DNA of 64,000 nucleotides from Zychaea mexicana (Eukaryota > Mucoromycota > Mucoromycetes > Mucorales > Lichtheimiaceae). A program made the position numbers and the translations under genes. The stretch spans positions 1 through 64,000 of the forward strand of contig NW_026516760.1 of NCBI RefSeq assembly GCF_025766255.1, in the 5' to 3' direction. Each line of letters opens with the position of its first letter. Position 1 is the first letter of the stretch. The notes beneath the pieces are model-generated. The model searched no databases. It had not been told where the DNA came from and was given only the letters and a program-made list of their open reading frames with translations. Of the stretch, positions 9,238 through 40,410 are shown in pieces.

Positions 9238-9256
9238 AAAATAAGCCTGTCCTAAA

Positions 9257-9277
9257 CGGTATAGCCATTAATGGCCA
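9257..9277. other. Candidate left boundary site of element X
   Basis: This 21-bp sequence contains the perfect dyad GCCATTAATGGC. It is close to the reverse complement of the sites at 40038-40058 and (interrupted) 36391-36404 and 10446-10455, all of form GGCCACTAATGGTTATACC. It lies just beyond the 3' end of the coiled-coil gene. It may be a transposase-binding or terminal site of X. Confidence 0.4.
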
Positions 9278-9285
9278 ATACAAGT

Positions 9286-10149
9286 TTAATCAGAATCATC
9301 ACTATATTCATCATCACTATATTCATCTTCACTTTCAAATTCATGTGTATATATCTGACTATATTCAATAATTAACTTCTGCATTTGCTCTTGACACATT
9401 TGCATAATATCATCCCTATTTGTTTCTTTTGCTTTTATTAAATCAATATAATATCTAAAGTATAAATTGAAAAACCTTTTATACTTATATTTTTCCTTTT
9501 CAAGTTTTAAAATAAGTTCATCAATAAAACTACAATCATAAGTATCATTTAATTTATCCATACAGGGCTTATATGCAATCATACACATATATTCACCCCC
9601 ACCGGATTCATATTCATCGTTATCTGAATCACCCTGTGAGGAATCTGCACTAGAGGTGTCATCTAACATTGCATCGGAAATACGAGGATTTGAGGATTGC
9701 TGAGAATTTAAATTTTCAGCGTATGTTTCTTTTATTTGTATATTTGAAATATGAGGAATTTCAATTTGCTGAGAATTTAAATCTTCAGCAACTATTTCTT
9801 TTGGAGGTAATGTATCGGGATTTTCATAGTATTTCTCATATTTATGTAATTTTTCCTTTAGTTTTACATTCTCCTTTAATATTTTCTCTTTACTTTTTTT
9901 AACAGAAATAATATCTCTTTCATTATTCGCTTTACTTAAATTATTTTTAGATGACTCTTTTTGTTTTTTTGATGCTTTACATTTTATTAATAATTTATTC
10001 TTTCTAATATTATAATTTATATCATATTTTTCATAAATCGTTTTTTCAGCAAATTCTTTGATGTTTATATTATTATTATTTAAAAATATACTTAATTTAT
10101 TGGTATCAAGGACAATTTTGTCATTGTTGAATGTGATTGTGTTGTTCAT
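9286..10149 (-). CDS. Coiled-coil acidic protein of element X
   Basis: An intact frame of 287 residues. Residues 1-100 are Asn/Lys-rich, with a heptad-like helix around the segment KEKILKENVKLKEKLHKYEK. A linker at about 150-175 (SSNPRISDAMLDDTSSADSS) is nearly the same, at DNA level too, as the linker in both Rep proteins. The C-terminal half is helical and ends in an acidic tail (EDEYSDDEYSDDSD). The start is chosen as the first Met, with an AAAATTGA box 46 bp upstream. No enzymatic domain is seen; a structural or DNA-binding partner role is a guess. It is transcribed divergently from the DDE gene of the element. Confidence 0.6.
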   Translation of the reverse strand: MNNTITFNNDKIVLDTNKLSIFLNNNNINIKEFAEKTIYEKYDINYNIRKNKLLIKCKASKKQKESSKNNLSKANNERDIISVKKSKEKILKENVKLKEKLHKYEKYYENPDTLPPKEIVAEDLNSQQIEIPHISNIQIKETYAENLNSQQSSNPRISDAMLDDTSSADSSQGDSDNDEYESGGGEYMCMIAYKPCMDKLNDTYDCSFIDELILKLEKEKYKYKRFFNLYFRYYIDLIKAKETNRDDIMQMCQEQMQKLIIEYSQIYTHEFESEDEYSDDEYSDDSD

Positions 10150-10194
10150 GTTTAATATTATGAGGTGTTATTTTTTACCTAAGAAAAAAAATTC

Positions 10195-10202
10195 AATTTT
10201 TA
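10195..10202 (-). promoter_or_regulatory. AAAATTGA promoter-like box, coiled-coil gene
   Basis: On the minus strand the sequence reads AAAATTGAATTTTTTT and lies 46 bp upstream of the ATG at 10149. It matches the Mimivirus-type early promoter motif in sequence and spacing. Confidence 0.6.
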
Positions 10203-10225
10203 TTTTTTCAAAATTTTTAAATATA

Positions 10226-10455
10226 TGCATGCCAAGACATACATACATAATTAAATTTTATAAAAATTATTGTAGTTACACCAACTTATTGTGGCTATTC
10301 ATCTAATTAGTACCAATAAACCAGAGCATAGTCATTGTAACCTCGACTGGTCCTCTGGATTTTTAAAATTGGCGTCCTACTATTAGTTGTCTAACCAATT
10401 ATAATCTACTAGCTGTAATATAGATAATAAAATTGCTATGACCGGTATAACCATC
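10226..10455. other. Element X intergenic module (upstream of coiled-coil and DDE genes)
   Basis: It begins with ATGCATGCCAAGACAT, a segment also found upstream of both Rep genes at 15289-15411 and 30095-30230, followed by a degenerate GGCTAT...AATAAACCAG block. The right part (10375-10455) matches the minus strand of 40048-40125. It is cut at 10455 by insertion of an LTR retrotransposon. Confidence 0.5.
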
Positions 10456-10787
10456 TGTAACGGTGCATACTATTACGACGATATCCAACCTGCATGGTTG
10501 ACGATCGACAACACATGGTTCAGACGATAGGATGACTTGCGGTCAACTGCATGGTTGAATATGGAGTAATAGGCGTGGATATTCTAGATAGAAGTTATGA
10601 TGTAGATCAATACTTAGACGATAGCTAGCCCCCTATTACTCGACGTATATATAAAGACGGGATCCTGAGTTATATGGATCCCTATCGTTTTATCCTTTGA
10701 TATATCCGAGTCTCACCTTATTCATTGATCCACACTGTCTACCCATTCACGTTCCCGATTGTAAGTATCTGGGCCGACACTGTTACA
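10456..10787 (+). repeat. 5' LTR of Ty3/gypsy element RE (left half)
   Basis: A 332-bp LTR with TGTAAC...GTTACA ends. It is about 97-98 percent identical by eye to the inverted LTR at 36405-36736. CCATC precedes it. A possible primer binding site (TGGTAGCGGAAGC) starts two bases after its end. The LTR has a TATATAAAG box near 10650, a likely Pol II core promoter. Confidence 0.85.
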
Positions 10788-12308: not shown

Positions 12309-12423
12309 GACGACGATAGTGCAATAGTAAATACAACAAAAATGGATCTTCTAGCTTGAGCTGGTCAAATGTTTTCAGACAGCGAAAAGAGCAATGGAGT
12401 CTCCTCTAGGTGTACGGGAGTGT
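12309..12423. other. Junction segment between RE and DDE gene (inversion breakpoint 1)
   Basis: Non-coding sequence of unknown origin joins the end of the gag-like frame to the DDE transposase gene at a conserved Trp codon. The DDE sequence resumes at TATGGAAAAG (12423-12432). The partner breakpoint is at 38849. See the inversion finding. Confidence 0.6.
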
Positions 12424-12830
12424 ATGGAAAAGACTTTGAATTCCCAAGTAAGAAAAACAAACTTGACTTAGTATTTTCAAATGAGCAAAAAGTAAATATT
12501 GAATATAACGAAATGGTTGACATTCAGCAGAAATTTCTACAGCTTAACATTAATCAATCAATAGATATGGCTATAGATAGTGAGGACGAAACTGAAAATA
12601 ATACATCTAAATGCAAGAGAGAAAATCAAAGAGAACAGAGAAATAGAGAACATGGTAATTCATATGAAATTGAGAAGATTGTAGGACATGTGTATACTGA
12701 TAATAAGTACATATTTGAGGTTAAGTGGGTTGGATATAGTGTAAAGGATAATAGCTGGTTAACAGTTGATAAGTTTAATTCCCGGGAAATGCTACATGAA
12801 TATATGGCCACACATGGTATTCAGCTCTAA
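12424..12830 (+). pseudogene. 3' fragment of X-element DDE-chromodomain transposase
   Basis: The fragment encodes the last part of the transposase from YGKDFEFPSKKN through a Lys/Arg/Glu-rich linker to a C-terminal chromodomain (SYEIEKIVGHVYT, then FEVKWVGYSVKDNSW). It is almost identical to 34792-35199. The catalytic core is missing because the retrotransposon RE is joined to it at a broken Trp codon. Its 3' end converges on the Rep gene, with 34 bp between the stops. The missing 5' part is probably the fragment at 38849-39922. Confidence 0.85.
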
Positions 12831-12864
12831 ATTAATTTCTTATTTCTTTGTTTATTAAAAAATC

Positions 12865-14931
12865 TCATATTGCATCAACCTCTCGTTTACTTGCCCAATT
12901 ATATTTATTTTTTATGCATTCATTAGTTATACTTGTACTTATATTAGTACCTGTTGATTTATTTTTGACGTCAGTTTCTTTTGTTATATCTATATCATCT
13001 ATTATAGCCTGTTTTATATCCTTATGCTTTTTAAAATATTCTTTTGGTTTTATTTCTTCTACTACCTTCTTGTTTCTCCATTTATTTTTATTTTGTCTTT
13101 TTTTCTTTTTACGTTTTGGTATAGTATTAGGTATATTACAGTCACTGCTTTGCTCTGATTCGGATGTACTGACATCTATATATTTATGTTTCTCTGTATC
13201 TTGTGGTAGGTTTTCCCAATCGATGTTATCAGTTATAACTTCATCACATTTAATATCATTTAATACATCCTCCCAATGTCTACAATCTTCTGGTAGGGGT
13301 GCCTTTACAGTTGACCATCCTCTATTATTTTGTTGAGGTGTTTTATGCTGTTTATTGTTCTGTGTATTATTACTATTATGTTTTTTTTCTTGTTCCTTCA
13401 TATATTCTTCTGTATCAGCTAATTCTTGCAGTTCCTCTACTGTTTTATCCATCGGTGTATATTTTTTGATACCATCCTGACCACTATTATGTGCATAACG
13501 GATAAATGTATGCTGATCTTGGTATTCGTTTTCGAATTCATCTTTGTATAAGTCTTCATACATATACATGTTTTCATAATACATGAATTTATTTTCATAA
13601 TCCTTCACCTTCATTGTGTATGGATTCCATATTATATAACCTTTACGGTTCTTATCAACATAGATAATATATAAACGATTGAGCGTTGGTTCTAACTCAT
13701 ATACTGATTTATTTTTGTATAACATGTGCGGCATATAGTTACTATTCAGTATTATTGGCATATTTTTCTTTTTAGTTATTGACTTTGTGAATTTGCCATT
13801 AAGTTTTAACCGTGTTCCTTCTAACATTTGGTTTAAAAATGTTAATTTGAAATCAGAACCTGTTTCTTCATTATACATAAAATCATAATCATCATCCTTA
13901 TAATCTGACCAATCATTTTCTTTATTCATTAGATATGCTCGATGGCCACCTTGTTCTAATACATCAATGTTATATGTCTTACCTACATTTGATGGACCTA
14001 CAATCCAGTATTGTGGTATCTTATTTTTACCACCAAACATTGTTTCAATCCCAGACATAGACCACATATGTAATTTATTTCCAGGGTTATTTTCCATATC
14101 GGCATCATGAAAGTAAGAATTTAAATTTGATTTTACAGTATCATATTTCCATAGCAATTCTGGATATATTTTGGTAGCTTTCCGCATATTAAGCTGCTTA
14201 GTAATTAATTGATATCCAAGTAACTGTTGGTGCATTTCTCTGATCTTAACTTCGTAATTTGGATCCATATTATAACAAATATAATCTTTTCCTTTCATAC
14301 AATAGCTAATAGACTTTTGTGGATTACCACCTGGTTTGATATTTGGAGTAACACCATCAATAGTAAAGAATTTACGTGCTGTTTTTGTGTCGAATCGCTC
14401 ATCCATTTGTATCCATATGTGTACATGTTTCTCATTGGTTTCTGGTGCAATTTCATCACATGCAATTGCCTTTTCAATTCGATAACCAATACGTTCATGT
14501 TTTATAAACCATTCCATGATTTGTTCTTTTGTTAAATGGAAGTCCTTACAAATATATGTGAACAGCCCTTTAGTGTTTTGGAATCGGAATTCTTTGACGC
14601 CCTGTGAGGAATCTGCACCAGAGGTGTTACCCTCTAACATTGCATCGGAAAATTGAGGATTTGAGGATTTGAGGAATCTCACATATGCCCTAATTCTACC
14701 CATGATCTTAGAACGGCTTTGGTCCTTTGTTTTTTTGTCAATTTTTGTATTTTTCAAGTTTTTTATTAGTTCATCCTTTAGTTGGTCAATGATAATGTTA
14801 ACATCATTAATATGTTTGTGATGTTCAGCAAGATATTTAGCTCTTTTAATCAGGAGCATCAAAGTTATTCCTAAAATAGGAACGAACTCAGCCATTATGG
14901 CAAGAAATGTTAGTAAGTTAATCTGATCCAT
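12865..14931 (-). CDS. CRESS-type Rep: HUH endonuclease plus SF3 helicase (copy 1)
   Basis: An intact frame of 688 residues. An N-terminal hydrophobic helix (about 6-28) is followed by a charged helix and a linker at 88-110. The HUH nuclease has motif I FTYICKDF (124-131), motif II HVHIW (169-173) and motif III YCMK (Y210, K213). The superfamily 3 helicase has Walker A GPSNVGKT (312-319), a Walker B region near 346-355 and motif C PIILNSN (392-398). Residues from about 480 are Asn/Lys-rich and acidic, without a domain. Rep proteins of this type nick an origin and start rolling-circle replication of ssDNA viruses, plasmids or transposons. The order and spacing of motifs fit, but the protein is about twice usual viral length and the membrane helix is unusual. 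It is convergent with the DDE gene. Confidence 0.85.
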   Translation of the reverse strand: MDQINLLTFLAIMAEFVPILGITLMLLIKRAKYLAEHHKHINDVNIIIDQLKDELIKNLKNTKIDKKTKDQSRSKIMGRIRAYVRFLKSSNPQFSDAMLEGNTSGADSSQGVKEFRFQNTKGLFTYICKDFHLTKEQIMEWFIKHERIGYRIEKAIACDEIAPETNEKHVHIWIQMDERFDTKTARKFFTIDGVTPNIKPGGNPQKSISYCMKGKDYICYNMDPNYEVKIREMHQQLLGYQLITKQLNMRKATKIYPELLWKYDTVKSNLNSYFHDADMENNPGNKLHMWSMSGIETMFGGKNKIPQYWIVGPSNVGKTYNIDVLEQGGHRAYLMNKENDWSDYKDDDYDFMYNEETGSDFKLTFLNQMLEGTRLKLNGKFTKSITKKKNMPIILNSNYMPHMLYKNKSVYELEPTLNRLYIIYVDKNRKGYIIWNPYTMKVKDYENKFMYYENMYMYEDLYKDEFENEYQDQHTFIRYAHNSGQDGIKKYTPMDKTVEELQELADTEEYMKEQEKKHNSNNTQNNKQHKTPQQNNRGWSTVKAPLPEDCRHWEDVLNDIKCDEVITDNIDWENLPQDTEKHKYIDVSTSESEQSSDCNIPNTIPKRKKKKRQNKNKWRNKKVVEEIKPKEYFKKHKDIKQAIIDDIDITKETDVKNKSTGTNISTSITNECIKNKYNWASKREVDAI

Positions 14932-15021
14932 GTTGTGTTGAATGTTGTGAAAGTGTTGTATATATAACAGATAAAATTCGCTTGATATCTTGAGGTATTA
15001 TTTTATATAATAAATAAAAAT

Positions 15022-15029
15022 TCAATTTT
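15022..15029 (-). promoter_or_regulatory. AAAATTGA promoter-like box, Rep copy 1
   Basis: The minus strand reads AAAATTGAATTTTTAT, 90 bp upstream of the Rep ATG. The second Rep copy has the box at the same distance (88 bp). Confidence 0.65.
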
Positions 15030-15056
15030 TATTTATTTTGAAAATTTAAATGTATG

Positions 15057-15288
15057 AAGATTGTTTAATAAGTTTTTGATTATAACATTTTTTATTTTTA
15101 AAATATAATTTAATTTTTAAATTTCATTTTTAAATAAAAGATAATGATCATTATGTGAAGGGGTGGTCTGAGAAAAAATCTTTGATTTTTTTGAAGACGT
15201 AGCTGGTCATCGAGACGGTAGTCGAGACCCTAGAATAACGGTAGTTATTCTAAACACTTGTCTACAAGTGTCCTCATGAACAGTGTCC
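15057..15288. mobile_element. Hairpin-rich insertion (delta) with TATG duplication
   Basis: This 232-bp segment interrupts sequence that is continuous in the coiled-coil unit (10205-10235) and in Rep copy 2. TATG is present on both sides (15053-15056 and 15289-15292). It contains adjacent hairpins: GAAAAAATC/GATTTTTT, AGAATAAC-GGTA-GTTATTCT and ACACTTGT-CT-ACAAGTGT. Its right half aligns with the hairpin repeats at 27806, 28362 and 50691 through the shared core AGCTGGTC and the GGTA loop. Confidence 0.65.
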
Positions 15289-15411
15289 TATGCATGCCAA
15301 GATATATGTACATGAATTATTTAAATAAAAATTAATTTGGCTATCCTGATATATCTTAGCTAATAAACCAGCTAGGGTTACTAAATCGCATTAAAATCAT
15401 CATAACTATAG
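15289..15411. other. Right-end module of element X, copy 1
   Basis: About 120 bp from ATGCATGCCAAGATAT to the region around 15411 match the minus strand of 30095-30230 at roughly 85 percent. After it, host repeat R sequence resumes (CCAATCAGCATTAAAC), so the true end of X is near 15395-15420. Confidence 0.55.
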
Positions 15412-15439
15412 CCTTTCCTCTATCCAATCAGCATTAAAC

Positions 15440-15858
15440 AACCTCACCTAGGATTGAGCAAGGGAATTCAGGTCATGCATTTTAAGCACGCTCTTGAAGA
15501 AGGGATCTCAAAATACAGAATGCTTGTTGCATTTCCTGGAGATGTCCCCTAATATACTCAACAAGTAGGTCACGATAATAATATAGATCAATATGTTTGT
15601 TATTGTCATAGAATTTAGGAATCAAGCTGTGGGATAGAGTAATCATTGATGGGAGTTACTTGTATATTGGGCTGCTGGGTACACTCGTTGGGCCATGTTC
15701 TGCTACAATACTGGCATGTTTTCCTTCATTCAGGCGAATAATGACTAGATCTACGATTCTGCAAAGGTTTTTTCATTCCTTGTCCTTTGATCGCAAGATG
15801 GTTTTATGTTCTTTCTTGAGTTCCTTCAGCACAGATAAAGTTTCTTCACAAGCAGCCT
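15440..15858 (-). pseudogene. Decayed coding remnant, unknown
   Basis: One minus-strand frame reads mostly through this interval with a few stops and carries plausible protein segments (RIVDLVIIRLNEGKHASIVA and LIPKFYDNNKHIDLYYYRDL). I do not recognise it. It lies between element X and the chromovirus and may be host coding sequence or an old transposon. Confidence 0.3.
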
Positions 15859-15966
15859 AGAAAATATAACTCATAGTTAAAGAAAAACAAGAGATTTATA
15901 GATTATTAATAAATTATATTATTTTTTACAGTAATAAGTTCAAAAATTTTATATTTAAATACATAT

Positions 15967-16191
15967 TGTCGTGGCTGACTTACAGCGGTTTCGATTAGAA
16001 ACCAGCGTCAAGAAGTATTGGTCAGGTTGCTGAGCGGATCTATCATTTATCTGGTTTTTCTTTTCATCGTCACAGACCCTGGTCGTGTATAAATAGCTGT
16101 AGAAAACAAGTGAAGGATAGAGGATTCATTCTTTTTGAATTAAACAGCAATCTCGAAGACTTCTAGTCCCTTTCTATTGTTGAACACCACA
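15967..16191 (+). repeat. 5' LTR of chromovirus
   Basis: A 225-bp LTR starting TGTCGTGGCTGACTTAC and ending GAACACCACA. It has a TATAAATAG box near 16088, likely the start of the genomic transcript. Confidence 0.95.
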
Positions 16192-16232
16192 TTTTTTTCT
16201 TCGAATTTTGACTACCAATCTATCCTACCACT

Positions 16233-19200
16233 ATGAACAGCCAAGCCACTTTCGATTTCAAGAAGGCTCAAGCCACTGAAGACCTTACCATGGAGGAAGT
16301 TGTTGGCGAGTCGTCCCGTTCCCCAGGCATCTCCAGTGTCGAGAAGGACATCTATGCCCAGCCTGTAGCAGACGGTAGCACCACCGCCATGTTATCGAGC
16401 TTGGAGTCCAAGCATGCTGACCCGCAGGTAATTGCTTCGAGACTTTTTGAGGTCTATAAGGCCCAATTAGAGCAACTTTTGTTGGAAGCACTTCGCCTCG
16501 AGGATGCGCAAGCACCCGCTGAGCAGAAGGCATACCATCAACGCCTTGTTGCTGCTGCCACTGAGCGAGCCCGTGTGTATAAAGACGCCGGTGCCATTGT
16601 GAAGTGTGTCAAGCAGGAGAATGGACCCAAGATTCCTTTGAAGGATCTGCCCGTTTTCCAAATCAAAAACAGTGTCAGAGACAAGACCAAAGAGGTTTTT
16701 TCATCTGTCAACGACTTTTTGACCAAGTTTGAGGTCGTGGTTCGCCACCACAATGCTTCGCCAGAAGATTGCTGGGAAACCACCATGCTGCCAACATTGT
16801 CGACCGAGCAATTGTCTTGGTTCCAACGTCACTTGGCGGACAAACGTCTGTCTTGGTCGCAAGCCAAGAAAGCATTCAACCTGAAATATGGTGGTGCTTC
16901 GCAAGCAGTTGCCATCTCAGACCAGTTGCATGCAATGAAACTTAGACCAAGAGAGAACTTGATCAAGTACACTGACAAGTACAACAAGCTCATGCACGAT
17001 GCCGAGGAGGAGGACAGCAAGACTTGGGGTCAAATCTTTGTCCGGTCACTCACTCCAGAGCTGCAGATGGCTGTGAAGGTGGCTTACGCTGCCTCTGCCA
17101 AGGATCAGCCTCTCAATGTTGCAAAGGCGACCGAACTGCTGAGCATTGTGTACGACGGGTACAAAGATGCTGGCCAAGACGTCAACAATTGGTCACTATC
17201 TGATGATGATGGTGAAGAACATGACCGCAGACCTGCTAAGAAAGCAAGAAAGCAAGAGTCGCGAGTCGACCAGTGTCGTCGCCACCCCACATCCAACCAC
17301 ACCAATGGCCAATGTTTCTCGAGCAAGCCCGAGTCCTCTTCTCAAAAGAGAGACAAAGGTAAGGAACGAGCCGGAACCAAAGTCAATGAAGAACGCTGCT
17401 GGTTTTGCGGCCGCATTCGTGTCGATGGTCACAAGTGCAAAGAGTATCTCGAGCACAAGCAAGCAAGAGAAAAACAATATGAACTTAAACAACGACGTGC
17501 CCAATTGGAACAGGAAAGGGCTCAGTCCGCAACCTCGGCCGCCACCCATAGCGAACCCAACCAGCAGGACCTCCTTCCGGTCACTGACATGGATTTGGAT
17601 TTCGACGCTGTCATTGACAAGGCAAATCAAGGTATGCAGCAGCCGATCCTTTATATGAGATCTGGCGCAAAAGGAAATGAGCGTTCACAGAACAACACTA
17701 ACGATTCTATTTTCGTTCCTATCACGGTACAGAATAGTAGAACCTTGGGACTCTGTGACAGCGGCGCAAATTTTTCTAGTCTGAGCAATAAATTTTGCCA
17801 ACAAAATAAAATACATTTTACAAAGCAAACTGTTCCTATCCATGAGGCAGCGAAAGGCCATATCGCTATGAGCAATGGCATCACTGACCCTTTGACAATC
17901 ATTCACAATGGTATTCAGACAACACATCGATTCTATGTGCTTGATATGACAGATGACACAGAGGTTTCACTCGGTCTTGACATCATGAACAAAATTGGAA
18001 TTTTCCTCGGAGGTTTGGCCCGGTCATGGGACACCCCAACACAGGTAGTTGAAAACACCGATGAGTATCAAACTCCGGATGAAACGCCTGCTGGAACCCC
18101 AGAAGAAAGAGACGCCTTTTTCTCTACTGTTTCTCCCATTCTCGAAGCCAACAAACGGATACCACCTGGAGCATTTTGCAATATCCCAGAAGCCGTTGTG
18201 CGCATCAAAACAATTCCTGGAAAGACAGTCTACACGTGACAATATGATCTTCCACCGAAACTTAATTCTCTTCTGGATGAGACCATATCAAAATGGCTCG
18301 CCGATGGTCTTATACAAGAAGCACTAAGTAACACGGAGTTTAACAACCCAATTATCTTTGTGCCCAAGAAAGACGCTGCTGGTAACCTCGTTGACAGAAG
18401 GCCCTGCCTAGACTTGCGCGCCCTTAACAGGATTCTCATTGAAGATGATCGCTTCCCATTACCATTGGTGAAAGACGTACTTCAGACTCTTAACGGAGCT
18501 AAAGTGGTGACACGACTCGATGTCAAGTCGGCATTTCACAAACTGCCTATTCCAGACCCGGTTGACCAGTCCAAACTAGCCTTCACTCATCGAGGGAAGC
18601 AATGGGTCTATAAAGGTGGGGCTTTTGGCCTAAAATTTTTGAGCAACCAATTTTGTCGGTGCCTTGCTACTATCACAAACGGAATGCGTTGTATTTCCTT
18701 TGTGGACGATGTATACGTTTATGATACAGATTTGGCTTCACATAGCGCCAATGTCGCAGCTGTGGTATCCAAACTGACCGAATGCAATTTGCTACTGAAT
18801 CACGAGAAATCCGGCTTTGCACTATCACGCACCAATGTTTTGGGTTTTGTAGTAGGCGAATCAGGGATATTCTTGGATCCAAAAAAGACATCCAATATAC
18901 AATCGATTGACAGACCTCAAACAGGCAAAGAGGTGATGCGTTTCTTGGGCATTGCAAATTATATGCGCACCCACCTGCCACGATTTTCGGATCTGACAGC
19001 ACCTTTGGACAAGCTACGCAATGTACAAAAGATCGGCGATCTATGGACTCATGAGTGCCAGCGGAGCTTTGAAAACATCAAGCTAGCCCTTACTCGAGCA
19101 CCTACTTTGAGCCAATTTCGACCAGACTTGAAATGCTACCTTGGTACCGACGCGAGCAATGTTGGAATTTCCGCAATCTTATTCCAAAAGCATCCGCGCA

Positions 19201-21026: not shown

Positions 21027-21086
21027 TCGACCTACTTTCAGATCACCACTTCTTCTTTCCAGTTGCAACAACCTGGAGGGGGGTTA

Positions 21087-28925: not shown

Positions 28926-29096
28926 TAAGTGTAAGCATGGGTAATTGTTATATTTCAATATTTTGTTTTTACCTCAGTTGCATGAAATATTCTGGTTACA
29001 AGCTTTCTTTAGTAAGTTACACAAATTATATAAAGTTATATAAATATTTTTTTTTGATTTTTCATAAAACACTTTTTTTCTTTTTTCTTTATCAAA

Positions 29097-29865: not shown

Positions 29866-30094
29866 GAGCATCTCCAACGGTCGTTCTAAGTTCCATTTTA
29901 GGATTCCGAAATAGAAAATATCGAGTTCCAACGGTCGTCCTATTTCTACTCTATTCTAGAAAAGGGTCAAACTTTTTAGAATAGGCGTCCCAAAATTAGG
30001 GCATGTTTTCTAAAATAAAATCGTGTTGTTGTACACAGTAAAATAAAGCTCTCTCTTCTTTATAAATCACTTCCTTTTCCAACAACAATGGGGA

Positions 30095-30237
30095 CCGGCC
30101 ATGGTTATGATGATTTTAATGCGGTCTAGTAACCCTAGATGACTAATTAGCTAAGATATGTCAGGATAGCCAAACTAATTTTTATTGAAATAATTCATGC
30201 ACGAATGTCTTGGCATGCATACATTTACAGTTGACCC
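30095..30237. other. Right-end module of element X, copy 2 (inverted)
   Basis: The minus strand of this segment matches 15289-15411 at roughly 85 percent. It starts with CCGGCCATGGTTATGATGAT and ends with the GCATGCAT block, where a Tigger element is inserted at TA 30236-30237. Confidence 0.55.
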
Positions 30238-32568: not shown

Positions 32569-32587
32569 TAAATTTTTGAAAAAAAAT

Positions 32588-32595
32588 AAAATTGA
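32588..32595 (+). promoter_or_regulatory. AAAATTGA promoter-like box, Rep copy 2
   Basis: AAAATTGAATTTTC lies 88 bp upstream of the Rep ATG at 32684. The Tigger end lies 20 bp further upstream, so the insertion spared the box. Confidence 0.65.
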
Positions 32596-32683
32596 ATTTT
32601 CTTTTAATATAAAAATAATACCACAGAATATAAAGCAAAATATATTTGTTATATTTTTTATTTTTATTACTTCAACAATCGAC

Positions 32684-34795
32684 ATGAACCAACTCAACCT
32701 TCTCGCATTCTTAGCCATTATGGCTGAATTTGTTCCTATTTTAGGAGTTACATTGACGCTCTTAATTGAAAGAGCAAAACACCTTGCTGAAAACCATCAG
32801 TATATTGAGTATGAACCTCTTGTCACACAACTGAGGTCAGAACTCGAAAAAGACCTTACACAGGCTAAAGTTGATAAAAAAACTAAAAATAATACACGCA
32901 ATAAAATAATTGGAAGAATTCGAGAATATGTGAGATTCCTTAAATCCTCAAATCCTCAATTTTCCGATGCAATGTTAGAGGGTAACACCTCTGGTGCAGG
33001 TTCCTCGCAGGGCGGTAAAGAATTCCGATTCCAAAATACTAAAGGGCTGTTCACATATATTTGTAAGGACTTCCATTTAACAAAAGAGCAAATCATGGAA
33101 TGGTTTATAAAACATGAACGTATTAGTTATCGAATTGAAAAGGCAATTGCATGTGATGAAACTACACCAGAAACCAATGAGAAACATGTACACATATGGA
33201 TACAAATGGATGAGCGATTTGACACAAAAACAGCACGTAAATTCTTTACTATTGATGGTGTTACTCCAAATATCAAACCAGGTGGTAATCCACAAAAGTC
33301 TATTAGCTATTGTATGAAAGGAAAAGATTATATTTGTTATAATATGGATCCAATTTATGAAATTAAAACCAGAAAAATGCACCAACAGCTACTTAGATAT
33401 CAATTAATTACTAAGCAGCTTAATATGCGGAAGGCTACCGAAATATATCCAGAATTGCTATGGAAATATGATACTGTAAAATCAAATTTAAATTCTTACT
33501 TTCATGATGCAGATATGGAAAATAACCCTGGAAATAAATTACATATGTGGTCTATGTTTAGTATTGAAACAATGTTTGGTGGCAAAAATAAGATACCACA
33601 ATACTGGATTGTAGGTCCATCAAATGTAGGTAAGACATATAACATTGATGTATTAGAACTAGGTGGTCATCGAGCATATTTAATGAATAAAGAAAATGAT
33701 TGGTCAGATTATAAGGATGATGATTATGATTTTATGTATAATGAAGAAACAGGTTCTGATTTCAAATTAACATTTTTAAACCAAATGTTAGAAGGAACAC
33801 GGTTAAAACTTAATGGCAAATTCACAAAGTCAATAACTAAAAAGAAAAATATGCCAATAATACTGAATAGTAACTATATGCCGCACATGTTATACAAGAA
33901 TAAATCAGTATATGAGTTAGAACCAACGCTCAATCGTTTATATATTATCTATGTTGATAAGAACTGTAAAGGTCATATAATATGGAATCCATACACAATG
34001 AAGGTGAAGGATTATGAAAATAAATTCATGTATTATGAAAACATGGATATGTATGAAGACTTATACAAAGATGAATTCGAAAACGAATACCAAGATCAGC
34101 ATACATTTATCCGTTATGCACATAATAGTGGTCAGGATGGTATCAAAAAATATACACCGATGGATAAAACAGTAGAGGAACTGCAAGAATTAGCTGATAC
34201 AGAAGAATATATGAAGGAACAAGAAAAAAAACATAATAGTAATAATACACAGAACAATAAACAGCATAAACCACCTCAACAAAATAATAGAGGATGGTCA
34301 ACTGTAAAGGCACTCCTACCAGAAGATTGTAGACATTGGGAGGATGTATTAAATGATATAAAATGTGATGAAGTTATAACTGATAACATCGATTGGGAAA
34401 ACCTACCACAAGATACAGAGAAACATAAATATATAGATGTCAGTACATCCGAATCAGAGCAAAGCAGTGACTGTAATATACCTAATACTATACCAAAACG
34501 TAAAAAGAAAAAAAGACAAAATAAAAATAAATGGAGAAACAAGAAGGTAGTAGAAGAAATAAAACCAAAAGAATATTTTAAAAAGCATAAGGATATAAAA
34601 CAGGCTATAATAGATGATATAGATATAACAAAAGAAACTGACGTCAAAAATAAGTCAACAGATACTAATATAAGTACAAGTATAACTAATGAATGCATAA
34701 AACATAAATATAATTGGGCAAGTAAACGAGAGGTTAATGCGGTCAGTTTCAATATGAGATTTTTTAATAAACAAAGAAATAAGAAATTAATTTAG
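32684..34795 (+). CDS. CRESS-type Rep: HUH endonuclease plus SF3 helicase (copy 2)
   Basis: An intact frame of 703 residues from the ATG at 32684. The frame is open upstream to 32501 only because of Tigger terminal sequence, so I do not use the earlier Met. All motifs of copy 1 are conserved: FTYICKDF, HVHIW, YCMK, GPSNVGKT and PIILNSN. From the linker onward the two proteins are about 97 percent identical, but residues 1-88 are only about 60 percent identical, although the membrane helix (FLAIMAEFVPILGVTLTLLI) is kept. A roughly 10-bp insertion near the 3' end extends the frame so that it overlaps the stop of the convergent DDE gene. Confidence 0.85.
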   Translation: MNQLNLLAFLAIMAEFVPILGVTLTLLIERAKHLAENHQYIEYEPLVTQLRSELEKDLTQAKVDKKTKNNTRNKIIGRIREYVRFLKSSNPQFSDAMLEGNTSGAGSSQGGKEFRFQNTKGLFTYICKDFHLTKEQIMEWFIKHERISYRIEKAIACDETTPETNEKHVHIWIQMDERFDTKTARKFFTIDGVTPNIKPGGNPQKSISYCMKGKDYICYNMDPIYEIKTRKMHQQLLRYQLITKQLNMRKATEIYPELLWKYDTVKSNLNSYFHDADMENNPGNKLHMWSMFSIETMFGGKNKIPQYWIVGPSNVGKTYNIDVLELGGHRAYLMNKENDWSDYKDDDYDFMYNEETGSDFKLTFLNQMLEGTRLKLNGKFTKSITKKKNMPIILNSNYMPHMLYKNKSVYELEPTLNRLYIIYVDKNCKGHIIWNPYTMKVKDYENKFMYYENMDMYEDLYKDEFENEYQDQHTFIRYAHNSGQDGIKKYTPMDKTVEELQELADTEEYMKEQEKKHNSNNTQNNKQHKPPQQNNRGWSTVKALLPEDCRHWEDVLNDIKCDEVITDNIDWENLPQDTEKHKYIDVSTSESEQSSDCNIPNTIPKRKKKKRQNKNKWRNKKVVEEIKPKEYFKKHKDIKQAIIDDIDITKETDVKNKSTDTNISTSITNECIKHKYNWASKREVNAVSFNMRFFNKQRNKKLI

Positions 34796-36276
34796 AGCTG
34801 AATACTATGTGTGGCCATATATTTATGTAGCATTTCCCGGGAATTAAACTTATCAACTGTTAACCAGCTATTATCCTTTACACTATATCCAACCCACTTA
34901 ACCTCAAATATGTACTTATTATCAGTATACACATGTCCTACAATCTTCTCAATTTCATATGAATTACCATGTTCTCTATTTCTCTGTTCTCTTTGATTTT
35001 CTCTCTTGCATTTAGATGTATTATTTTCAGTTTCTTCCTCACTATCTATAGCCATATCTATTGATTGATTAATATTAAGCTGTAGAAATTTCTGCTGCAT
35101 GTCAACCATTTCGTGATATTCAGTATTTACTTTTTGCTCATTTGAAAATACTAAGTCAAGTTTGTTTTTCTTACTTGGGAATTCAAAATCTTTTCCATAC
35201 TATAATTTATGATGTGGTTGTACCTCTATATTATACTTCTTTACAAATCGCCATATATTAGTAAGAATACAAGCAACACGAAACTGAATATTATAATATC
35301 TTATCTCGGTTATTTGCAATGCTGCACGATTATTATTAAATCGTTCAAATTTAGAGCCTAACATAGAGAACTGTGCTTCTATTACTGAACGAAATGATCC
35401 AAACTTGTTATTAAAGTATGTCTCATTGATTGTTAACTTTTGTCCCGGTTCTTTTCTTATGGGATGTAAAAAATTACAGTCATAAAAACTATATCCAGCA
35501 TCTGTCGCATTATCTTTAAACTTTTGTATAAATAAGTTATATCCACCATCCATTCCTAAACAATCTGCCTCACTTATTTTATTATATAGTGTTATATTAA
35601 TAAACATAGTACCATCATTTCCGATAGCACATTTTTCAGATACTGAAACATGTGTAATTATTTCACTCATATCCTGTATAACCTGTGTACGTACAGCTGG
35701 CCCTTTTAATTTATATGAATATAACTGTGATTGTGACTCATTTGGTTTATAATACTTTATTTTACTATCATGTCCATCAATAAATAGTGTAACATTCTTA
35801 AAACCATCTGGATTGTTTATTATTGCTGATAGAATGCGAATATGTGGTGATGAGAACATACTATCTAAATCTTGTTTTACCTTTTTATTCACTTCATTAT
35901 AGTTAGTAATCTAGAACCGCTTATATAAATCATAAAATGTTGCATATGGCATAACAGTATGCATATCCTTTCCTGATACACCTGATACCATATGATATAA
36001 TAATGCAAGTCCTTTTTCAATCTCGTGGTATAGCCCTGGATATTCAATATTCTCATATGAAACTGTAAGAAAATAAAATAGAGGTATAAATCCAAATCTA
36101 TGAAGTAATACATCCTTTATATCATTTATTGTATTATTCTTCATATCTTTAATAGCTGTTCTATGATTAAATCTATGTTGCATTTCAGGCCAAGATTTAT
36201 CAAGAAAAGTCCATTTATTATCAATTAAATTTTTAATTTCAATATCGAGTTGTTCAGTGTGTTGTGTTGTGTTCAT
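34792..36276 (-). pseudogene. X-element DDE-chromodomain transposase, full length with two TAG stops
   Basis: A single minus-strand frame of 494 codons, including both internal stops. The N-terminal helical domain (1-120) has RFNHRTAIKD and EKGLALLYHMVSG. The DDE core has FIDGHDSKI (first Asp), CLGMDGGYNL (second Asp) and FGSFRSVIEAQFSMLGSKF (Glu), like the DDE_Tnp_4/Harbinger-IS5 group. The chromodomain is C-terminal (VKWVGYSVKDNSW). Conserved Trp codons are TAG at 35911-35913 and 35200-35202. The copy at 39557 shares the first stop but not the second. The chromodomain probably targets the transposase to marked nucleosomes. Superfamily placement is inference. Confidence 0.85.
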
Positions 36277-36352
36277 TTTTATTTGTTGTTATGTACTTTA
36301 AACAATCGCTCTTTTTTTTCTCATAGGAGGCTACCAATATAAATAAAAAAAT

Positions 36353-36360
36353 TCAATTTT
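36353..36360 (-). promoter_or_regulatory. AAAATTGA promoter-like box, DDE gene of X copy 2
   Basis: The minus strand reads AAAATTGAATTTTTTT, 76 bp upstream of the ATG at 36276. It is identical in position in the second DDE fragment (39999-40006). Confidence 0.65.
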
Positions 36361-36404
36361 TATTATTTTTATTGTAAATCAATAATTATTTCGGCCACTG
36401 ATGT

Positions 36405-36736
36405 TGTAACAGTGTCGGCCCAGATACTTACAATCAGGAACGTGAATGGGTAGACAGTGTGGATCAATGAATAAGGTGAGACTCGGATATATCAAAGGAT
36501 AAAACGATAGGGATCCATATAACTCAGGATCCCGTCTTTATATATACGTCGAGTAATAGGGGGCTAGCTATTGTCTAAGTATTGATCTACATCATAACTT
36601 CTATCTAGAATATCCACGCCTATTACTCCATATTCAACCATGCGGTTGACCGCAAGTCATCCTATCATCTGAACCATGCGTTGTCGATCGTCAACCATGC
36701 AGGTTGGATATCGTCATAACGGTATGCACCGTTACA
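36405..36736 (-). repeat. 3' LTR of Ty3/gypsy element RE (right half)
   Basis: A 332-bp LTR in minus orientation, about 97-98 percent identical to 10456-10787. On the minus strand it is preceded by the polypurine tract GGGGGAGGA and followed by ACATC. ACATC differs by one base from the CCATC that precedes the left LTR, consistent with one 5-bp target duplication in the GGCCACTAATGG site of X. Confidence 0.88.
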
Positions 36737-37112
36737 TCCTCCCCCGTCTACTTCAAGAGGTCGACTCGAAGTAAAACGTCAGGTGCTCGCCGTCGATCCG
36801 TCGACTCGTCCAAAGTAATTCTTGATTTGCGTCGTTTCGATCGCCGTCCTTTGTAGCTCGTTAATGTCTGTGCGTCGATCTGCGAGTAGTATGCACCGTC
36901 CTTGTGTGCGTCCAAGTGGGTTCGTATGCTGGAACTCTTCTACAGCAGTGACGGATCGTTTTGTGCGTCGACTGGATAGAAATCGTCCCGGTCTAGGGTT
37001 CTCCCCCCGCAAATTAAAACGTCGTGAGAGATCCCAAAAGGTGGTCGTCGTGGTGAAATAGACCCAGAGGAACTATAAAAAAAATAAACACCACAACCCA
37101 TTGCACATACAG

Positions 37113-38849
37113 TTACCTGTTTCGTCTGTGTTTGGGCGGACGACCACGGCGTCGAGGAAGTAAATTCGTATCCGAAGCTTTTGATGGCGTCGCTTCCTTG
37201 GATTGTTTGAAGTCTTGAAGAGCCTCGGGCGCATTGGAAAGGTGTTCGGCGGGTTCCCACGTCGCCTCGTGTAAGGGATAACCTTTCCACTTAACCAAAT
37301 ATTGTAGCTTGTTTCGTCGCTTGCGCTCGTCGAGAATGGCTTCAACTTCCCATTCGTCTTCGTCGTCAGAAACATTGGTGATCACTGGTGGTGGCCGTTC
37401 TGGCTTGCGTCCCACATCGTCAGGTTCCAAATATTTCTTGAGGGCGCTCACATGGAAAACGTTGTGAGCCCTGATCGAAGCCGGCAAATCAAGCTTGTAT
37501 GCCATGGATCCAATACGTTCAAGGATTTTGTAAGGACCCGCCCACCGTGGAAGTAACTTTCTGGCGGGAGCGTTGGAATAAACATCAGGATTCAAGTGGG
37601 TCGTCTTGACTAATACGTCGTCATCCACGTCGAATTCCAGATTACGTCGCTTCATATTGGCATACTTGGCTTGGCGATCCGTTGCTTCCTTGATTGCCTC
37701 AGTGACTTGAAGGCGGATAGACTCCAAACGTGTAGCGAGAACGTCTGCTGAATCAACATCAGAGGAGGCAGATCCCGTGGTCAAAGCGAGTGACACCTGT
37801 CGTCCCAAGTCAGCGTAAAAGGGTGTTACCCCTGTAGAAGCGTGCTTGGCGTCGTTGTAGGTGTGCTCGAGGACCGGCAGCCATTCGTCCCAATCCGATT
37901 GATTATATACAACGTAATGACGAAGCATATCTTCAAGCGTTCGATTCGTGCGTTCCGTCTGTCCGTCTGATTCTGGGTGTAGACTGCTGGACAAATTTCT
38001 TTGTACCCCAAGCATCGTCGTCAAGGCCTTCCAGAATCTAGAAGTAAAGCGGACATCTCGATCCGAGACTACGTCTGATGGTAAGCCGTGCTGTCAGTAT
38101 ATCTCACGCAAAAACAGATGAGCAAAATCCTCTGCTGTATCAGTCGTCTTGCATGGAGCAAAATGTGCGCGCTTTGAAAACCGATCCACAAAAACGGCAA
38201 TTGCATCGAACTTATGTAGCGTCTTCGGCAAGTGTGTGATAAAATCAACCGAAATTGAGGTCCATCGTCCAGAAGCTAGTTGCAATGGCTGCAACAAGCC
38301 TGCTTTTTTGGCATTTGGCAACTTGGTACGCTGGCACATGTCACACGTCGCAATATAACGTCGCACTGTTTTGTTCATATGTGGCTAGTAGTAAGTTCGT
38401 CCAAGTCGTTCGACCGTTGCATCGATGCCGCGATGACCGGCGATTGGTGCGTCGTGTGCGTCATGCAAGAGGGTGTTGAGAAGCGTTGGCATGCGCGGCA
38501 CACAGATTTGGCGTCGTCCATCTTTTTTGCGATAGATGATGCCGTCGGCTAGTTCGAACTCTTCGTCGTCGTCGTTCGTCCGAAGCCGAGTCAAAACGTC
38601 TGCCCAAAAAGAATCGTCCTTGTAGTGCTGAGTGCATTCCTTGCCAAGCGTCTCCCCCCTCACTGTGAGGACCACAGCACAAAGTTCCATTGAGACGTCG
38701 GGGTTGACATGAGCACTTAGTTTGCAAACAATATGGAAGATGGTAATTTGTATGAAGTTTTTGTTTGAGAGAAAATTATGCGCACAATAGCTTGTACAAC
38801 AAACAATGGTTTCTTGGCCGTTGCTGTTGCTACTAGGAATTATAACCAT
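37113..38849 (-). pseudogene. Ty3/gypsy Pol 3' part: integrase and chromodomain (RE right half)
   Basis: One minus-strand frame contains, in order: an HHCC integrase zinc domain (HDAPIAGHRGIDATVERLGR, then CDMCQRTKLP), catalytic segments SVDFITHLP, a second Asp in the DVVSDRDVRF region, HPESDGQTERTNRTL (Glu), a C-terminal integrase domain (AGPYKILERIG), a chromodomain (LVKWKGYPLHEATWEP) and a basic AT-hook-like tail (RRRGRPPKHRR). Conserved Trp codons are TAG at 38385-38387 and TGA at 38094-38096. No reverse transcriptase is present. The frame begins at a junction with DDE transposase sequence at 38849. Confidence 0.85.
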
Positions 38850-39922
38850 AATTTATGATGTGGTTGTACCTCTATATTATACTTCTTTACAAATCGCCAT
38901 ATATTAGTAAGAATACAAGCAACACGAAACTGAATATTATAATATCTTATATCAGTTATTTGCAATGCTGCACGATTATTATTAAATCGTTCAAATTTAG
39001 AGCCTAACATAGAGAACTGTGCTTCTATTACTGAACGAAATGATCCAAACTTGTTATTAAAGTATGTCTCATTGATTGTTAACTTTTGTCCCGGTTCTTT
39101 TCTTATGGGATGTAAAAAATTACAGTCATAAAAACTATATCCAGCATCTGTCGCATTATCTTTAAACTTTTGTATAAATAAGTTATATCCACGATCCATT
39201 CCTAAACAATCTGCCTCACTTATTTTATTATATAGTGTTATATTAATAAACATAGTACCATCATTTCCGATAGCACATTTTTCAGATACTGAAACATGTG
39301 TAATTATTTCATTCATATCCTGTATAACCTGTGTACGTACAGCTAGCCCTTTTAATTTATATGAATATAACTGTGATTGTGACTCATTTGGTTTATAATA
39401 CTTTATTTTACTATCATGTCCATCAATAAATAGTGTAACATTCTTAAAACCATCTGGATTGTTTATTATTGCTAATAGAATGCGAATATGTGGTGATGAG
39501 AACATACTATCTAAATCTTGTTTTACCTTTTTATTCACTTCATTATAGTTAGTAATCTAGAACCGCTTATATAAATCATAAAATGTTGCATATGGCATAA
39601 CAGTATGCATATCCTTTCCTGATACACCTGATACCATATGATATAATAATGCAAGTCCTTTTTCAATCTCGTGGTATAGCCCTGGATATTCAATATTCTC
39701 ATATGAAACTGTAAGAAAATAAAATAGAGGTATAAATCCAAATCTATGAAGTAATACATCCTTTATATCATTTATTGTATTATTCTTCATATCTTTAATA
39801 GCTGTTCTATGATTAAATCTATGTTGCATTTCAGGCCAAGATTTATCAAGAAAAGTCCATTTATTATCAATTAAATTTTTAATTTCAATATCGAGTTGTT
39901 CAATGTGTTGTGTTGTGTTCAT
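38849..39922 (-). pseudogene. 5' fragment of X-element DDE transposase (inversion breakpoint 2)
   Basis: The fragment encodes the N-terminal domain and whole DDE core, almost identical to 36276-35200, with the same TAG at 39557-39559. It ends exactly after the Trp codon of the HHKLW segment, where RE sequence begins. The 3' remainder, starting at the next codon, is the fragment at 12424-12830. Confidence 0.85.
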
Positions 39923-39998
39923 TTTTATTTGTTGTTATGTACTTTTAACGATTGCTCTTTTTTTTCTCGTAGGGGGCTACCAATATAAATAAAAAAAT

Positions 39999-40006
39999 TC
40001 AATTTT
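39999..40006 (-). promoter_or_regulatory. AAAATTGA promoter-like box, DDE 5' fragment
   Basis: 76 bp upstream of the ATG at 39922, in the same context as 36353-36360. Confidence 0.6.
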
Positions 40007-40037
40007 TATTATTTTTATTGTAAATAAATAAATAATT

Positions 40038-40058
40038 CGGCCACTAATGGTTATACCG
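40038..40058. other. Uninterrupted X boundary/intergenic site
   Basis: GGCCACTAATGGTTATACC is intact here. In the other two copies the retrotransposon RE begins in the middle of it. The related dyad at 9257-9277 marks the far side of the coiled-coil gene. Confidence 0.45.
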
Positions 40059-40129
40059 ATCATAGCAATTTTATTATTTATATTACAGCTAGTAGATTAT
40101 AATTGGTTAGACAACTAATAGCAGGAAGT

Positions 40130-40410
40130 CATAGAAATATCCTTCAACCTCCTTAAATACTAGGGGGTTTCTTTTTTTTTCATTGCAAAATCGTTCTTTT
40201 CCCAAAAGATAAGTCATATTATTGGTTTTATAATCTTGCAAGAAAAGCATGATAACAAGTCTACCTATGAACCCTGCCCTTCGCTGGAGAAGTATCCTAG
40301 CCTTGATAGCATTTGCTATAGCAATTGCGTCCCAGCTGGGAGTGGGAGCCGTAGTTTATCATTATGCTATTCATGTTGGCAGCACATATGTCAATGAAGG
40401 TATCAGGTAA
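40130..40410 (+). repeat. Repeat R, copy 2
   Basis: Inverted counterpart of 8040-8310. It starts where X sequence ends (around 40125-40135), so it marks the right-hand insertion border of X copy 2. Confidence 0.65.
40249..40410 (+). CDS. Small membrane-type ORF in repeat R (copy 2)
   Basis: A 53-residue frame: MITSLPMNPALRWRSILALI followed by a hydrophobic Ala/Ile stretch and the tail VVYHYAIHVGSTYVNEGIR. One membrane segment is likely. The stop follows a GGTAA that could be a splice donor, so this may be a first exon. No family recognised. Confidence 0.4.
   Translation: MITSLPMNPALRWRSILALIAFAIAIASQLGVGAVVYHYAIHVGSTYVNEGIR

What the first reader, a model, noticed from the sequence alone, without database searches (positions are those of the whole stretch)
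9257..40135. Element X: CRESS-like Rep and chromodomain DDE transposase in one mobile unit
Two inverted copies show the same gene set: a DDE transposase with a C-terminal chromodomain, and, converging on it, a Rep with HUH nuclease (HVH, YCMK) and SF3 helicase (GPSNVGKT, PIILNSN). A coiled-coil gene diverges from the DDE gene in copy 1. Rep normally serves rolling-circle replication; DDE enzymes serve cut-and-paste. One element encoding both could replicate as ssDNA or dsDNA and integrate by DDE chemistry. I do not know of a described family with this pair. Both Rep frames are intact while the DDE genes carry stops.
Basis: partly seen in the sequence, partly recalled or inferred. Interest (0 to 1): 0.88.

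Follow-up and report, generated by a model that had tools for sequence, protein, structure and literature searches.

The report
Jumping gene carrying virus-type replication gene
A fungus-like genome holds dozens of copies of a 4-kilobase jumping element that pairs a cut-and-paste enzyme with a replication enzyme of the kind used by small circular DNA viruses, which offers a testable way for such virus genes to settle and multiply in chromosomes.

Summary
The pairing is real. The genome (50.3 Mb; Mucorales-type fungus by inference) gave 56 Rep loci and 55 loci of the matching DDE gene (80% identity or more); 34 of 55 face a convergent Rep within 6 kb, 6 a divergent and 4 a same-strand one. In 27 of 30 fetched Rep loci DDE sequence abuts the Rep end. 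The unit is about 4.05 kb with fixed ends; 17 of 31 copies have an exact 3-bp flank match (shuffled mean 1.6), the mark of DDE insertion. Rep is geminivirus-like HUH plus SF3; dN/dS falls from 0.87 between young copies to 0.17 between old ones, lowest in the enzyme domains, so Rep mattered while the element spread. The window's two elements are scrambled by an inversion (12422-38844). The coiled-coil gene belongs to a separate 1.17-kb element with similar ends. Rolling-circle replication is inferred, not shown: no origin was found, and elements with DDE but no Rep also jumped. A Rep-plus-transposase transposon was described in truffle in 2011, so the kind is known; the chromodomain DDE, 3-bp duplications, exchangeable partner gene and seven head-to-tail junctions sharing one 15-bp spacer are what this case adds.

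The parts
30090..30227 (+). Left end of element A (starts GGGGACCGGCCATGG); left flank AAT
   Evidence: The same kind of left end was found in 26 of the 30 fetched Rep loci; 64 matches in the genome within 3 mismatches
30228..32568 (.). Insertion in element A between left end and Rep (not part of the unit)
   Evidence: Other loci, e.g. L011, L012, L019, run directly from the 30227 to the 32569 equivalent
32684..34795 (+). Rep of element A, about 703 aa from the first Met of open frame 32477-34795; HUH endonuclease plus SF3 helicase
34792..36288 (-). DDE_Tnp_4 transposase with C-terminal chromodomain of element A, interrupted by TAG at 35911-35913 and 35200-35202
36404..38844 (-). Gypsy-type retroelement piece (pol side and LTR) inserted in the right end of element A, carried here by the inversion
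   Evidence: translations; repeat pair I3; matches ending at 36403 in L027 and L031
10456..12421 (+). Other piece of the same gypsy insertion (LTR and gag-like ORFs)
   Evidence: Repeat pair I3
10371..10455 (-). Right end of element A (ends ...TAGGACGCC), right flank AAT
12422..38844 (.). Inverted segment: breakpoints fall between the gag and pol pieces and inside a DDE gene
   Evidence: Flanking triplets match only when copies are crossed; breakpoints
15289..15420 (-). Left end of element B, left flank ATA
12865..14931 (-). Rep of element B, about 688 aa from first Met; open, about 16 residues short at the C-terminus
12423..12830 (+). Chromodomain end of the DDE gene of element B
   Evidence: 95.6% identical to the copy-2 DDE C-terminal piece
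38845..39934 (-). N-terminal and catalytic part of the DDE gene of element B (one TAG), separated from its end by the inversion
40047..40130 (+). Right end of element B, right flank ATA
9185..10355 (-). 1.17-kb related element: left end at 10355, right end at 9185, no DDE and no Rep; own flanks CCA and AAT do not match
9286..10167 (-). Coiled-coil gene of that element (293 aa), alternative partner gene; shares a linker with Rep
10356..10370 (-). 15-bp spacer of the head-to-tail junction between element A and the coiled-coil element
   Evidence: Same kind of spacer at 7 junctions genome-wide
51379..53877 (+). Sister element: open DDE/chromodomain gene 51520-53085 and a convergent 178-aa gene 53170-53706 in place of Rep; 3-bp flank ATA on both sides

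Best explanation
Element X is a two-gene DNA transposon of about 4.05 kb. SHOWN: fixed ends, 3-bp target duplications, a chromodomain DDE transposase related to PIF/Harbinger, and, converging on it with overlapping stops, a CRESS-type Rep (HUH plus SF3) whose enzyme domains were under strong selection while the element multiplied. INFERRED: the DDE enzyme excises and inserts the element, with the chromodomain steering it to marked chromatin, and Rep nicks the excised (probably circular) form near the joined ends and multiplies it before reinsertion. X would thus be a capsid-less virus-type replicon that enters chromosomes by DDE chemistry, with Rep as a useful but replaceable module of the partner-gene slot.
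For: Pairing: 27 of 30 fetched Rep loci (24 strong, 3 remnants); 34 of 55 DDE loci and 35 of 56 Rep loci convergent within 6 kb, 13 pairs with a gap of at most 10 bases, against 6 divergent and 4 same-strand pairs with none so close. Ends. Flanks: 17 of 31 exact 3-bp matches, permutation mean 1.6, largest 8 in 20000. Selection: Rep median dN/dS 0.87 to 0.17 with rising dS over 462 pairs of 31 sequences; pN/pS HUH 0.17, middle plus SF3 0.14, N-terminus 0.44, C-terminus 0.47. Motif-III tyrosine and lysine, Walker A lysine and the NSN motif invariant in 9 of 9 aligned proteins (window's own plus 8 from lgn and jgi records, 31-42% identical to it). HUH fold: TYLCV Rep 7vg8 TM 0.78 and Vientovirus Rep 9pqf TM 0.76, normalised to target. 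Chromodomain fold: HP1 1kna TM 0.87 normalised to target, E 0.0037. Pairing elsewhere: Rep P0002 and DDE P0034 both list a longest contig of 4459 nt, P0132 and P0127 both 3051 nt, all with JGI among their sources; the contigs themselves were not read.
Against: Elements with the same DDE but a coiled-coil gene instead of Rep jumped too (L099, flanks TTT/TTT), and so did the Rep-less sister family (4 of 6 copies with matched triplets by eye), so Rep is not needed for transposition as such. Thirteen of 30 Rep copies share an amber codon just after the HUH motif. P0002 reads HYY at motif II and 3 of 30 genomic copies have Y for the second H. The DDE gene shows no fall of dN/dS with age (0.40-0.61). 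No origin or stem-loop was found: the TATATTAC motif is not conserved in coiled-coil elements, and three junction folds gave z -0.02, -0.13 and -2.48. Rep and DDE distances agree only weakly (Spearman 0.25, 107 of 2000 permutations as high). No circular form was observed.
Confidence: 0.58

Rival explanations
1. Rep serves as the DNA-binding accessory of the transposase, like ORF1 of PIF/Harbinger: it binds the ends and brings in the transposase, and its nuclease and helicase do not replicate the element.
For: Rep sits in the same convergent partner slot as the coiled-coil gene of L099 and the 178-aa gene; that coiled-coil protein keeps a linker and a C-terminal segment similar to Rep but has no HUH or SF3 match. 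PIF/Harbinger needs a second, DNA-binding protein (PMC2836001, passages read).
Against: Selection is strongest on the enzyme domains, weaker on the N- and C-terminal parts; the motif-III tyrosine and Walker A lysine are invariant in 9 of 9 aligned proteins.
Confidence: 0.2
2. Rep is a captured passenger: the element moves by DDE alone, and selection on Rep reflects something else, such as a few source copies or a host benefit.
For: DDE elements without Rep jumped; 13 of 30 Rep copies carry the amber at codon 241, in three haplotype backgrounds.
Against: Median dN/dS of 0.17 across old lineages of a dispersed repeat and conservation of the motifs in proteins from other records are hard to keep without use by the element.
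Confidence: 0.17
3. Chance nesting of unrelated elements.
For: The window itself is full of nested elements and looks disordered.
Against: Common ends, 3-bp flank matches and 34 of 55 convergent pairs.
Confidence: 0.02

Closest known systems
Geminivirus-like transposon of Tuber melanosporum (Liu et al. 2011, PMC3198968)
   Same: Tens of genomic copies (42 Rep genes or remnants), one Rep ORF plus transposase ORFs in one repeat
   Different: There: two transposase ORFs whose type is not named in the section read, 37-bp inverted repeats, no obvious target duplication. Here: one chromodomain DDE_Tnp_4 gene, very short imperfect inverted ends, 3-bp duplications, exchangeable partner gene. Sequence kinship was not tested; no hit named for Tuber was listed
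PIF/Harbinger (PHIS) transposons
   Same: DDE_Tnp_4 transposase, 3-bp target duplication, two genes
   Different: Partner is Rep, coiled-coil or a 178-aa protein, not Myb/SANT; C-terminal chromodomain; target triplets not restricted to TWA
CRESS-DNA viruses (geminiviruses, redondoviruses)
   Same: HUH endonuclease with motif-III YxxK and SF3 helicase; convergent genes with 5' ends facing the putative circle junction; small size
   Different: No capsid gene; chromosomal with DDE-type target duplications; no known origin motif found
Teratorn (piggyBac-herpesvirus fusion, PMC10175614, passages read)
   Same: Virus-type replication genes moved by a cut-and-paste transposase
   Different: 180 kb, fused with a herpesvirus, in fish; different transposase and virus
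DDE-type integrative conjugative elements (TnGBS group; PMC3942029 seen in a search listing with the start of its abstract; rest recalled)
   Same: Integrated element in which a DDE transposase accompanies plasmid-type functions
   Different: Bacterial, conjugative, unrelated proteins (recalled)

Membership tests
PIF/Harbinger (PHIS) | DDE_Tnp_4 transposase | tested here: met
   E 2.1e-11 for the naturally open L021 frame
PIF/Harbinger (PHIS) | 3-bp target site duplication | tested here: met
   17 of 31 copies, permutation mean 1.6
PIF/Harbinger (PHIS) | Second gene with Myb/SANT domain | tested here: not met
   No Myb/SANT hit listed for Rep, coiled-coil or 178-aa protein
PIF/Harbinger (PHIS) | Terminal inverted repeats | tested here: inconclusive
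   Only GGGGACC against GGCGTCC, 5 of 7 bases by eye
PIF/Harbinger (PHIS) | TWA-type target preference (recalled) | tested here: not met
   The 17 matched triplets include AAT, CTA, ACA, ATG, CTC, TTG, CAT, CTT
CRESS-type Rep | HUH motifs I-III and fold | tested here: met
   motif II second H is H in 27 and Y in 3 of 30 genomic copies
CRESS-type Rep | SF3 helicase motifs | tested here: met
   GPSNVGKT, MYNEE and ILNSN conserved; motif names recalled; fold confidence there is moderate
CRESS-DNA virus | Capsid gene | tested here: not met
   Rep and DDE fill the 4.05-kb unit; no other long frame between the ends
CRESS-DNA virus | Nonanucleotide in a stem-loop | tested here: inconclusive
   TTATATTAC once in the window (chance mean 1.68); not conserved in coiled-coil elements; folds of the window's ends z -1.14 to 0.80; junction folds inconsistent
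CRESS-DNA virus | Circular genome form | not testable with these tools
   No reads available
Tuber geminivirus-like transposon | 37-bp inverted repeats, no target duplication | tested here: not met
Tuber geminivirus-like transposon | Homologous Rep and transposase | not tested
   No Tuber sequence compared; none named among listed hits
Helitron | Rep/helicase protein and insertion without target duplication (recalled) | tested here: not met
   SF3-type motifs; 3-bp matches

The most novel reading that the evidence does not exclude
X and its coiled-coil partner live part of their cycle as circles joined right end to left end through a fixed 15-bp junction, multiply there as concatemers by Rep, recombine with each other, and are put back into chromosomes by the DDE enzyme as single or tandem units: a capsid-less CRESS-type replicon with a DDE-based 'lysogenic' phase and a Rep-less satellite. 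This would explain why variants of one spacer join CC-X, X-CC and X-X pairs, why every right end found with this spacer runs into a left end (7 of 7), why two tandems have matching outer triplets, and why 28 of 30 sequences look mosaic. Spread of one chromosomal tandem junction by recombination is not excluded.
Probability: 0.25. Interest if true: 0.86.

Novelty: new variant of a known kind. Interest (0 to 1): 0.63.

Why it matters
Rep genes of small circular DNA viruses occur in diverse eukaryotic genomes (PMC3198968, passages and section 8 read); one review says multi-copy cases are thought to integrate via the Rep endonuclease, without experimental confirmation (PMC10175614, passages read). 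Here integration carries the 3-bp signature of a DDE transposase encoded beside Rep, while Rep stayed under selection. That gives a concrete, testable route from virus-type replicon to transposon, and a natural set of Rep-bearing and Rep-less elements sharing one kind of transposase in which the contribution of Rep can be measured.

Tried and rejected
Chance nesting: rejected. Terminal inverted repeat by BLAST of the window's left end against its right side: nothing convincing. Origin search: TATATTAC motif and DNA folds: no support. Viral contig scans with two Rep queries: no relatives. Rfam and tRNA scans of the window: nothing. Foldseek of the DDE model against the PDB: no match at E 0.001 or better; the best rows are chromodomains (E 1.5e-3 upward), the catalytic part resembles Mos1, Tn5 and a retroviral intasome only weakly. 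Congruent Rep and DDE histories as proof of joint transmission: only weak, with mosaic copies as the likely reason. The Rep model beyond the HUH domain has low confidence (mean pLDDT 50.8), so the N- and C-terminal parts were not interpreted. Literature: ten searches; by their listings none is on a chromodomain DDE element with a Rep. PMC12730594 shows no occurrence of 'rep protein', 'geminivirus' or 'chromodomain' (term search). Subscription papers and Repbase were not searchable.

Rows dropped before counts: one search uses 65 of the 92 rows (80% identity or more), an earlier count, used two further rows of 75% and 66% that lie beside Rep and left out one 29-residue row, giving 36 of 57 and 37 of 56. 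One search dropped L006 and L031, whose DDE is of another type; searches kept them. C13 and C141 (same site) were counted once.
Full report
WHAT IS THERE. The window lies in a 50.3-Mb genome of 305 contigs (G000, window = C303:1-64000). The best named hits are Circinella minor for the transposase (79% identity) and Rhizopus stolonifer and R. arrhizus for Rep; these are Mucorales (recalled), so a Mucorales-type fungus is inferred. Two Rep genes stand in inverted orientation at 12865-14997 (minus) and 32477-34795 (plus). Each has HVH, YCMK, GPSNVGKT and ILNSN. Alone, copy 2 scores only weakly with Gemini_AL1 (E 0.0068, below cut-off) and copy 1 gives no Pfam hit, but 8 of 9 aligned proteins match Gemini_AL1 at E up to 0.01, best 2.3e-8, the profile finds Rep domains in the PDB (best E 4.2e-9), and the predicted HUH domain (block pLDDT 70-85) matches TYLCV and Vientovirus Rep. 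The neighbour gene is a DDE_Tnp_4 transposase with a C-terminal chromodomain.

IS THE PAIR MORE THAN CHANCE. Rep gave 64 matches in the genome (a lower bound, not all candidates are scored), merging to 56 loci. Of 30 loci fetched (L009-L038, the window's two included), 27 have DDE sequence in convergent orientation at the Rep 3' end, 24 with strong matches and 3 with remnants (L025, L027, L028); L031 and L032 lack it and L038 runs off a contig. Conversely, of 55 loci with 80% or more identity to the X-type DDE, 34 have a convergent Rep within 6 kb, and 35 of 56 Rep loci have such a DDE; 13 pairs are at most 10 bases apart. Divergent pairs number 6 and same-strand pairs 4, none so close. So 21 of 55 DDE loci and 21 of 56 Rep loci lack a partner within 6 kb.

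ENDS. A left end G(G/A)GGAC... was found in 26 of the 30 loci; L016/L017 and L035/L036 share a flank, L013, L027 and L031 start at a tandem junction, the others have unrelated flanks. A right end ...ACTAATAGYAGGACGCC was found in 11 of 13 right-hand regions fetched, with 10 different flanks (L040 and L046 share one). The genome holds 64 such left ends within 3 mismatches and 91 right ends within 2, which include right ends of coiled-coil elements; reversed-pattern controls gave 0 in both. Uninterrupted copies are 4.04-4.05 kb (C179 281342-285380, C141 14194-18243, C79 253187-257237). Thirty-one copies with both flanks read were compared: 17 have an exact 3-bp match, against 1.6 on average and at most 8 in 20000 shuffles; no 4-bp match occurs. 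Of the 14 misses two begin at a tandem junction (one further junction copy, L031, is among the 17); by eye seven of the other twelve differ by one base. L013 and L019 share their right flank with another copy, which again suggests rearrangement.

THE WINDOW IS SCRAMBLED. As laid out, copy 2 has flanks AAT and ATA and copy 1 has ATA and AAT. Crossed, they read AAT/AAT and ATA/ATA. The breakpoints, 12421/12422 and 38844/38845, fall between the gag and pol pieces of one gypsy insertion and inside one DDE gene. A single inversion of 12422-38844 explains this. It could be biological or an assembly error.

THE COILED-COIL GENE. Its 293-aa frame lies in a separate element (9185-10355) with X-like ends; that element's own flanks do not match (CCA and AAT). 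Related coiled-coil genes give 76 matches, many of them fragments, and their type of left end gives 36. Elsewhere a coiled-coil gene occupies the Rep slot facing the same DDE: in L099 a 301-aa coiled-coil protein overlaps the DDE stop, its last 30 residues are 80% identical to the end of Rep, a linker is 67% identical, and flanks are TTT/TTT. At C115 the coordinates give the same arrangement. Of four short coiled-coil copies with both flanks read, two match (TCA, TAC; L053, L055) and two do not (window, L060). A sister family in the same window (51379-53877) has a DDE gene 42-46% identical to the window's X-type DDE, a convergent 178-aa gene with 150 scored matches in the genome, and matched triplets in 4 of 6 copies by eye. 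So a chromodomain DDE backbone carries one of several partner genes; Rep is one of them.

DID REP MATTER. Pairwise NG86 on 31 sequences: median dN/dS is 0.87 for pairs with dS 0.01-0.05 and falls steadily to 0.17 for dS 0.5-1 (462 pairs). This is the pattern of inactive young copies descending from selected lineages. By domain pN/pS is 0.17 (HUH) and 0.14 (middle plus SF3), against 0.44 and 0.47 for the N- and C-terminal parts. The DDE gene shows 0.40-0.61 in all bins with more than a few pairs and no fall with age (21 sequences, L006 and L031 with another DDE type included). In 9 of 9 aligned Rep proteins (the window's own and 8 from lgn and jgi records, 31-42% identical) the motif-III tyrosine, its lysine and the main helicase residues are invariant; the HUH second H is not, P0002 having Y. 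Against a strict need in cis: 13 of 30 copies carry TAG instead of TGG at codon 241, next to HVHI, in three different local haplotypes by eye, while the ten other TGG codons show at most 2.

RECOMBINATION AND TANDEMS. Compared with the window's copy 2, 28 of 30 sequences show a step in divergence along Rep and DDE that 300 permutations never reach. In L006 and L031 the step is trivial, since their DDE is of another type, and rate differences along the gene add to the signal, but steps such as 15-20% then 2-6% in L021 are plain. This fits the weak Rep/DDE distance correlation. Seven right ends are followed by variants of one 15-bp spacer, and all seven run straight into a left end: C53, C79, C115, C174, C303, C51, C194. 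C51 and C194 have the same left flank and are probably duplicates. The orders include coiled-coil-X, X-coiled-coil and X-X. Outer triplets match for C115 and C303, not for C194 or C51, where the partner right end is only assumed. In C115 and C303 the spacer itself also supplies the matching triplet to one inner element, so a single-element reading is not excluded.

HOW IT MOST LIKELY WORKS. Shown: DDE-type insertion of a two-gene unit, and use of Rep during spread. Inferred: excision as a circle, nicking near the joined ends by Rep, replication, reinsertion by the DDE enzyme. The arrangement, two convergent genes whose 5' ends face the joined ends, is that of an ambisense CRESS replicon opened beside its intergenic region (layout recalled). 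The inference lacks an origin and a circle. The main rival is that Rep acts only as the end-binding partner of the transposase, as ORF1 does in PIF/Harbinger (PMC2836001, passages read).

KNOWN OR NEW. A Rep-plus-transposase repeat in truffle was published in 2011 (PMC3198968, section 8 read). Teratorn shows a similar principle with a herpesvirus (PMC10175614, passages read). Canonical Harbinger elements have 3-bp duplications, some lineages a Myb/SANT partner, and fungal relatives carry other extra genes (PMC12730594, passages read). By their listings, the ten searches named in Tried and rejected show no paper on a chromodomain DDE with Rep. I therefore file it as a new variant of a known kind.

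OTHER ORGANISMS. P0002 (Rep) and P0034 (DDE) both list a longest contig of 4459 nt; P0132 and P0127 both list 3051 nt; all four have JGI among their sources. That is 2 of the 12 Rep proteins found; most of the others lie on contigs under 2.8 kb. In the second pair the DDE fragment starts without a Met and the Rep fragment starts inside the helicase domain, while both C-termini look complete, as expected if the genes converge. The contigs could not be read, so this rests on equal lengths.

Noticed in passing
Rep codon 241 (window 33197-33199 in copy 2, TGG there); TAG in L011, L012, L013, L016, L017, L024, L025, L029-L033, L038: Recurrent amber TAG instead of TGG right after the HUH motif in 13 of 30 copies and three haplotype backgrounds; unexplained.
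   Followed up: partly
window 12422-38844: Inversion (or misassembly) joining two Rep elements crosswise; flank triplets match only when crossed.
   Followed up: yes
window 10349-10391 and six other loci: Variants of one 15-bp spacer in seven head-to-tail right-end/left-end junctions.
   Followed up: partly
Rep and DDE copies examined: Stops at TGG codons are TAG, never TGA; C-to-T type differences between close Rep pairs are more frequent at CpG (0.18) and CpA (0.081) than at CpT (0.065) and CpC (0.045), which might reflect a repeat-directed mutation process.
   Followed up: partly
window 15967-21311: LTR retrotransposon with identical 225-bp direct repeats and long open gag and pol frames, pol with a chromodomain: apparently very recent.
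   Followed up: no
window 51379-53877, 54014-54535, 57041-58402, 58820-60598: AT-rich cluster of sister DDE/chromodomain elements and a 173-aa relative of the 178-aa partner gene.
   Followed up: partly
C13 / C141 and C51 / C194: Same insertion flanks on two contigs, suggesting haplotype duplicates or segmental copies in the assembly.
   Followed up: no
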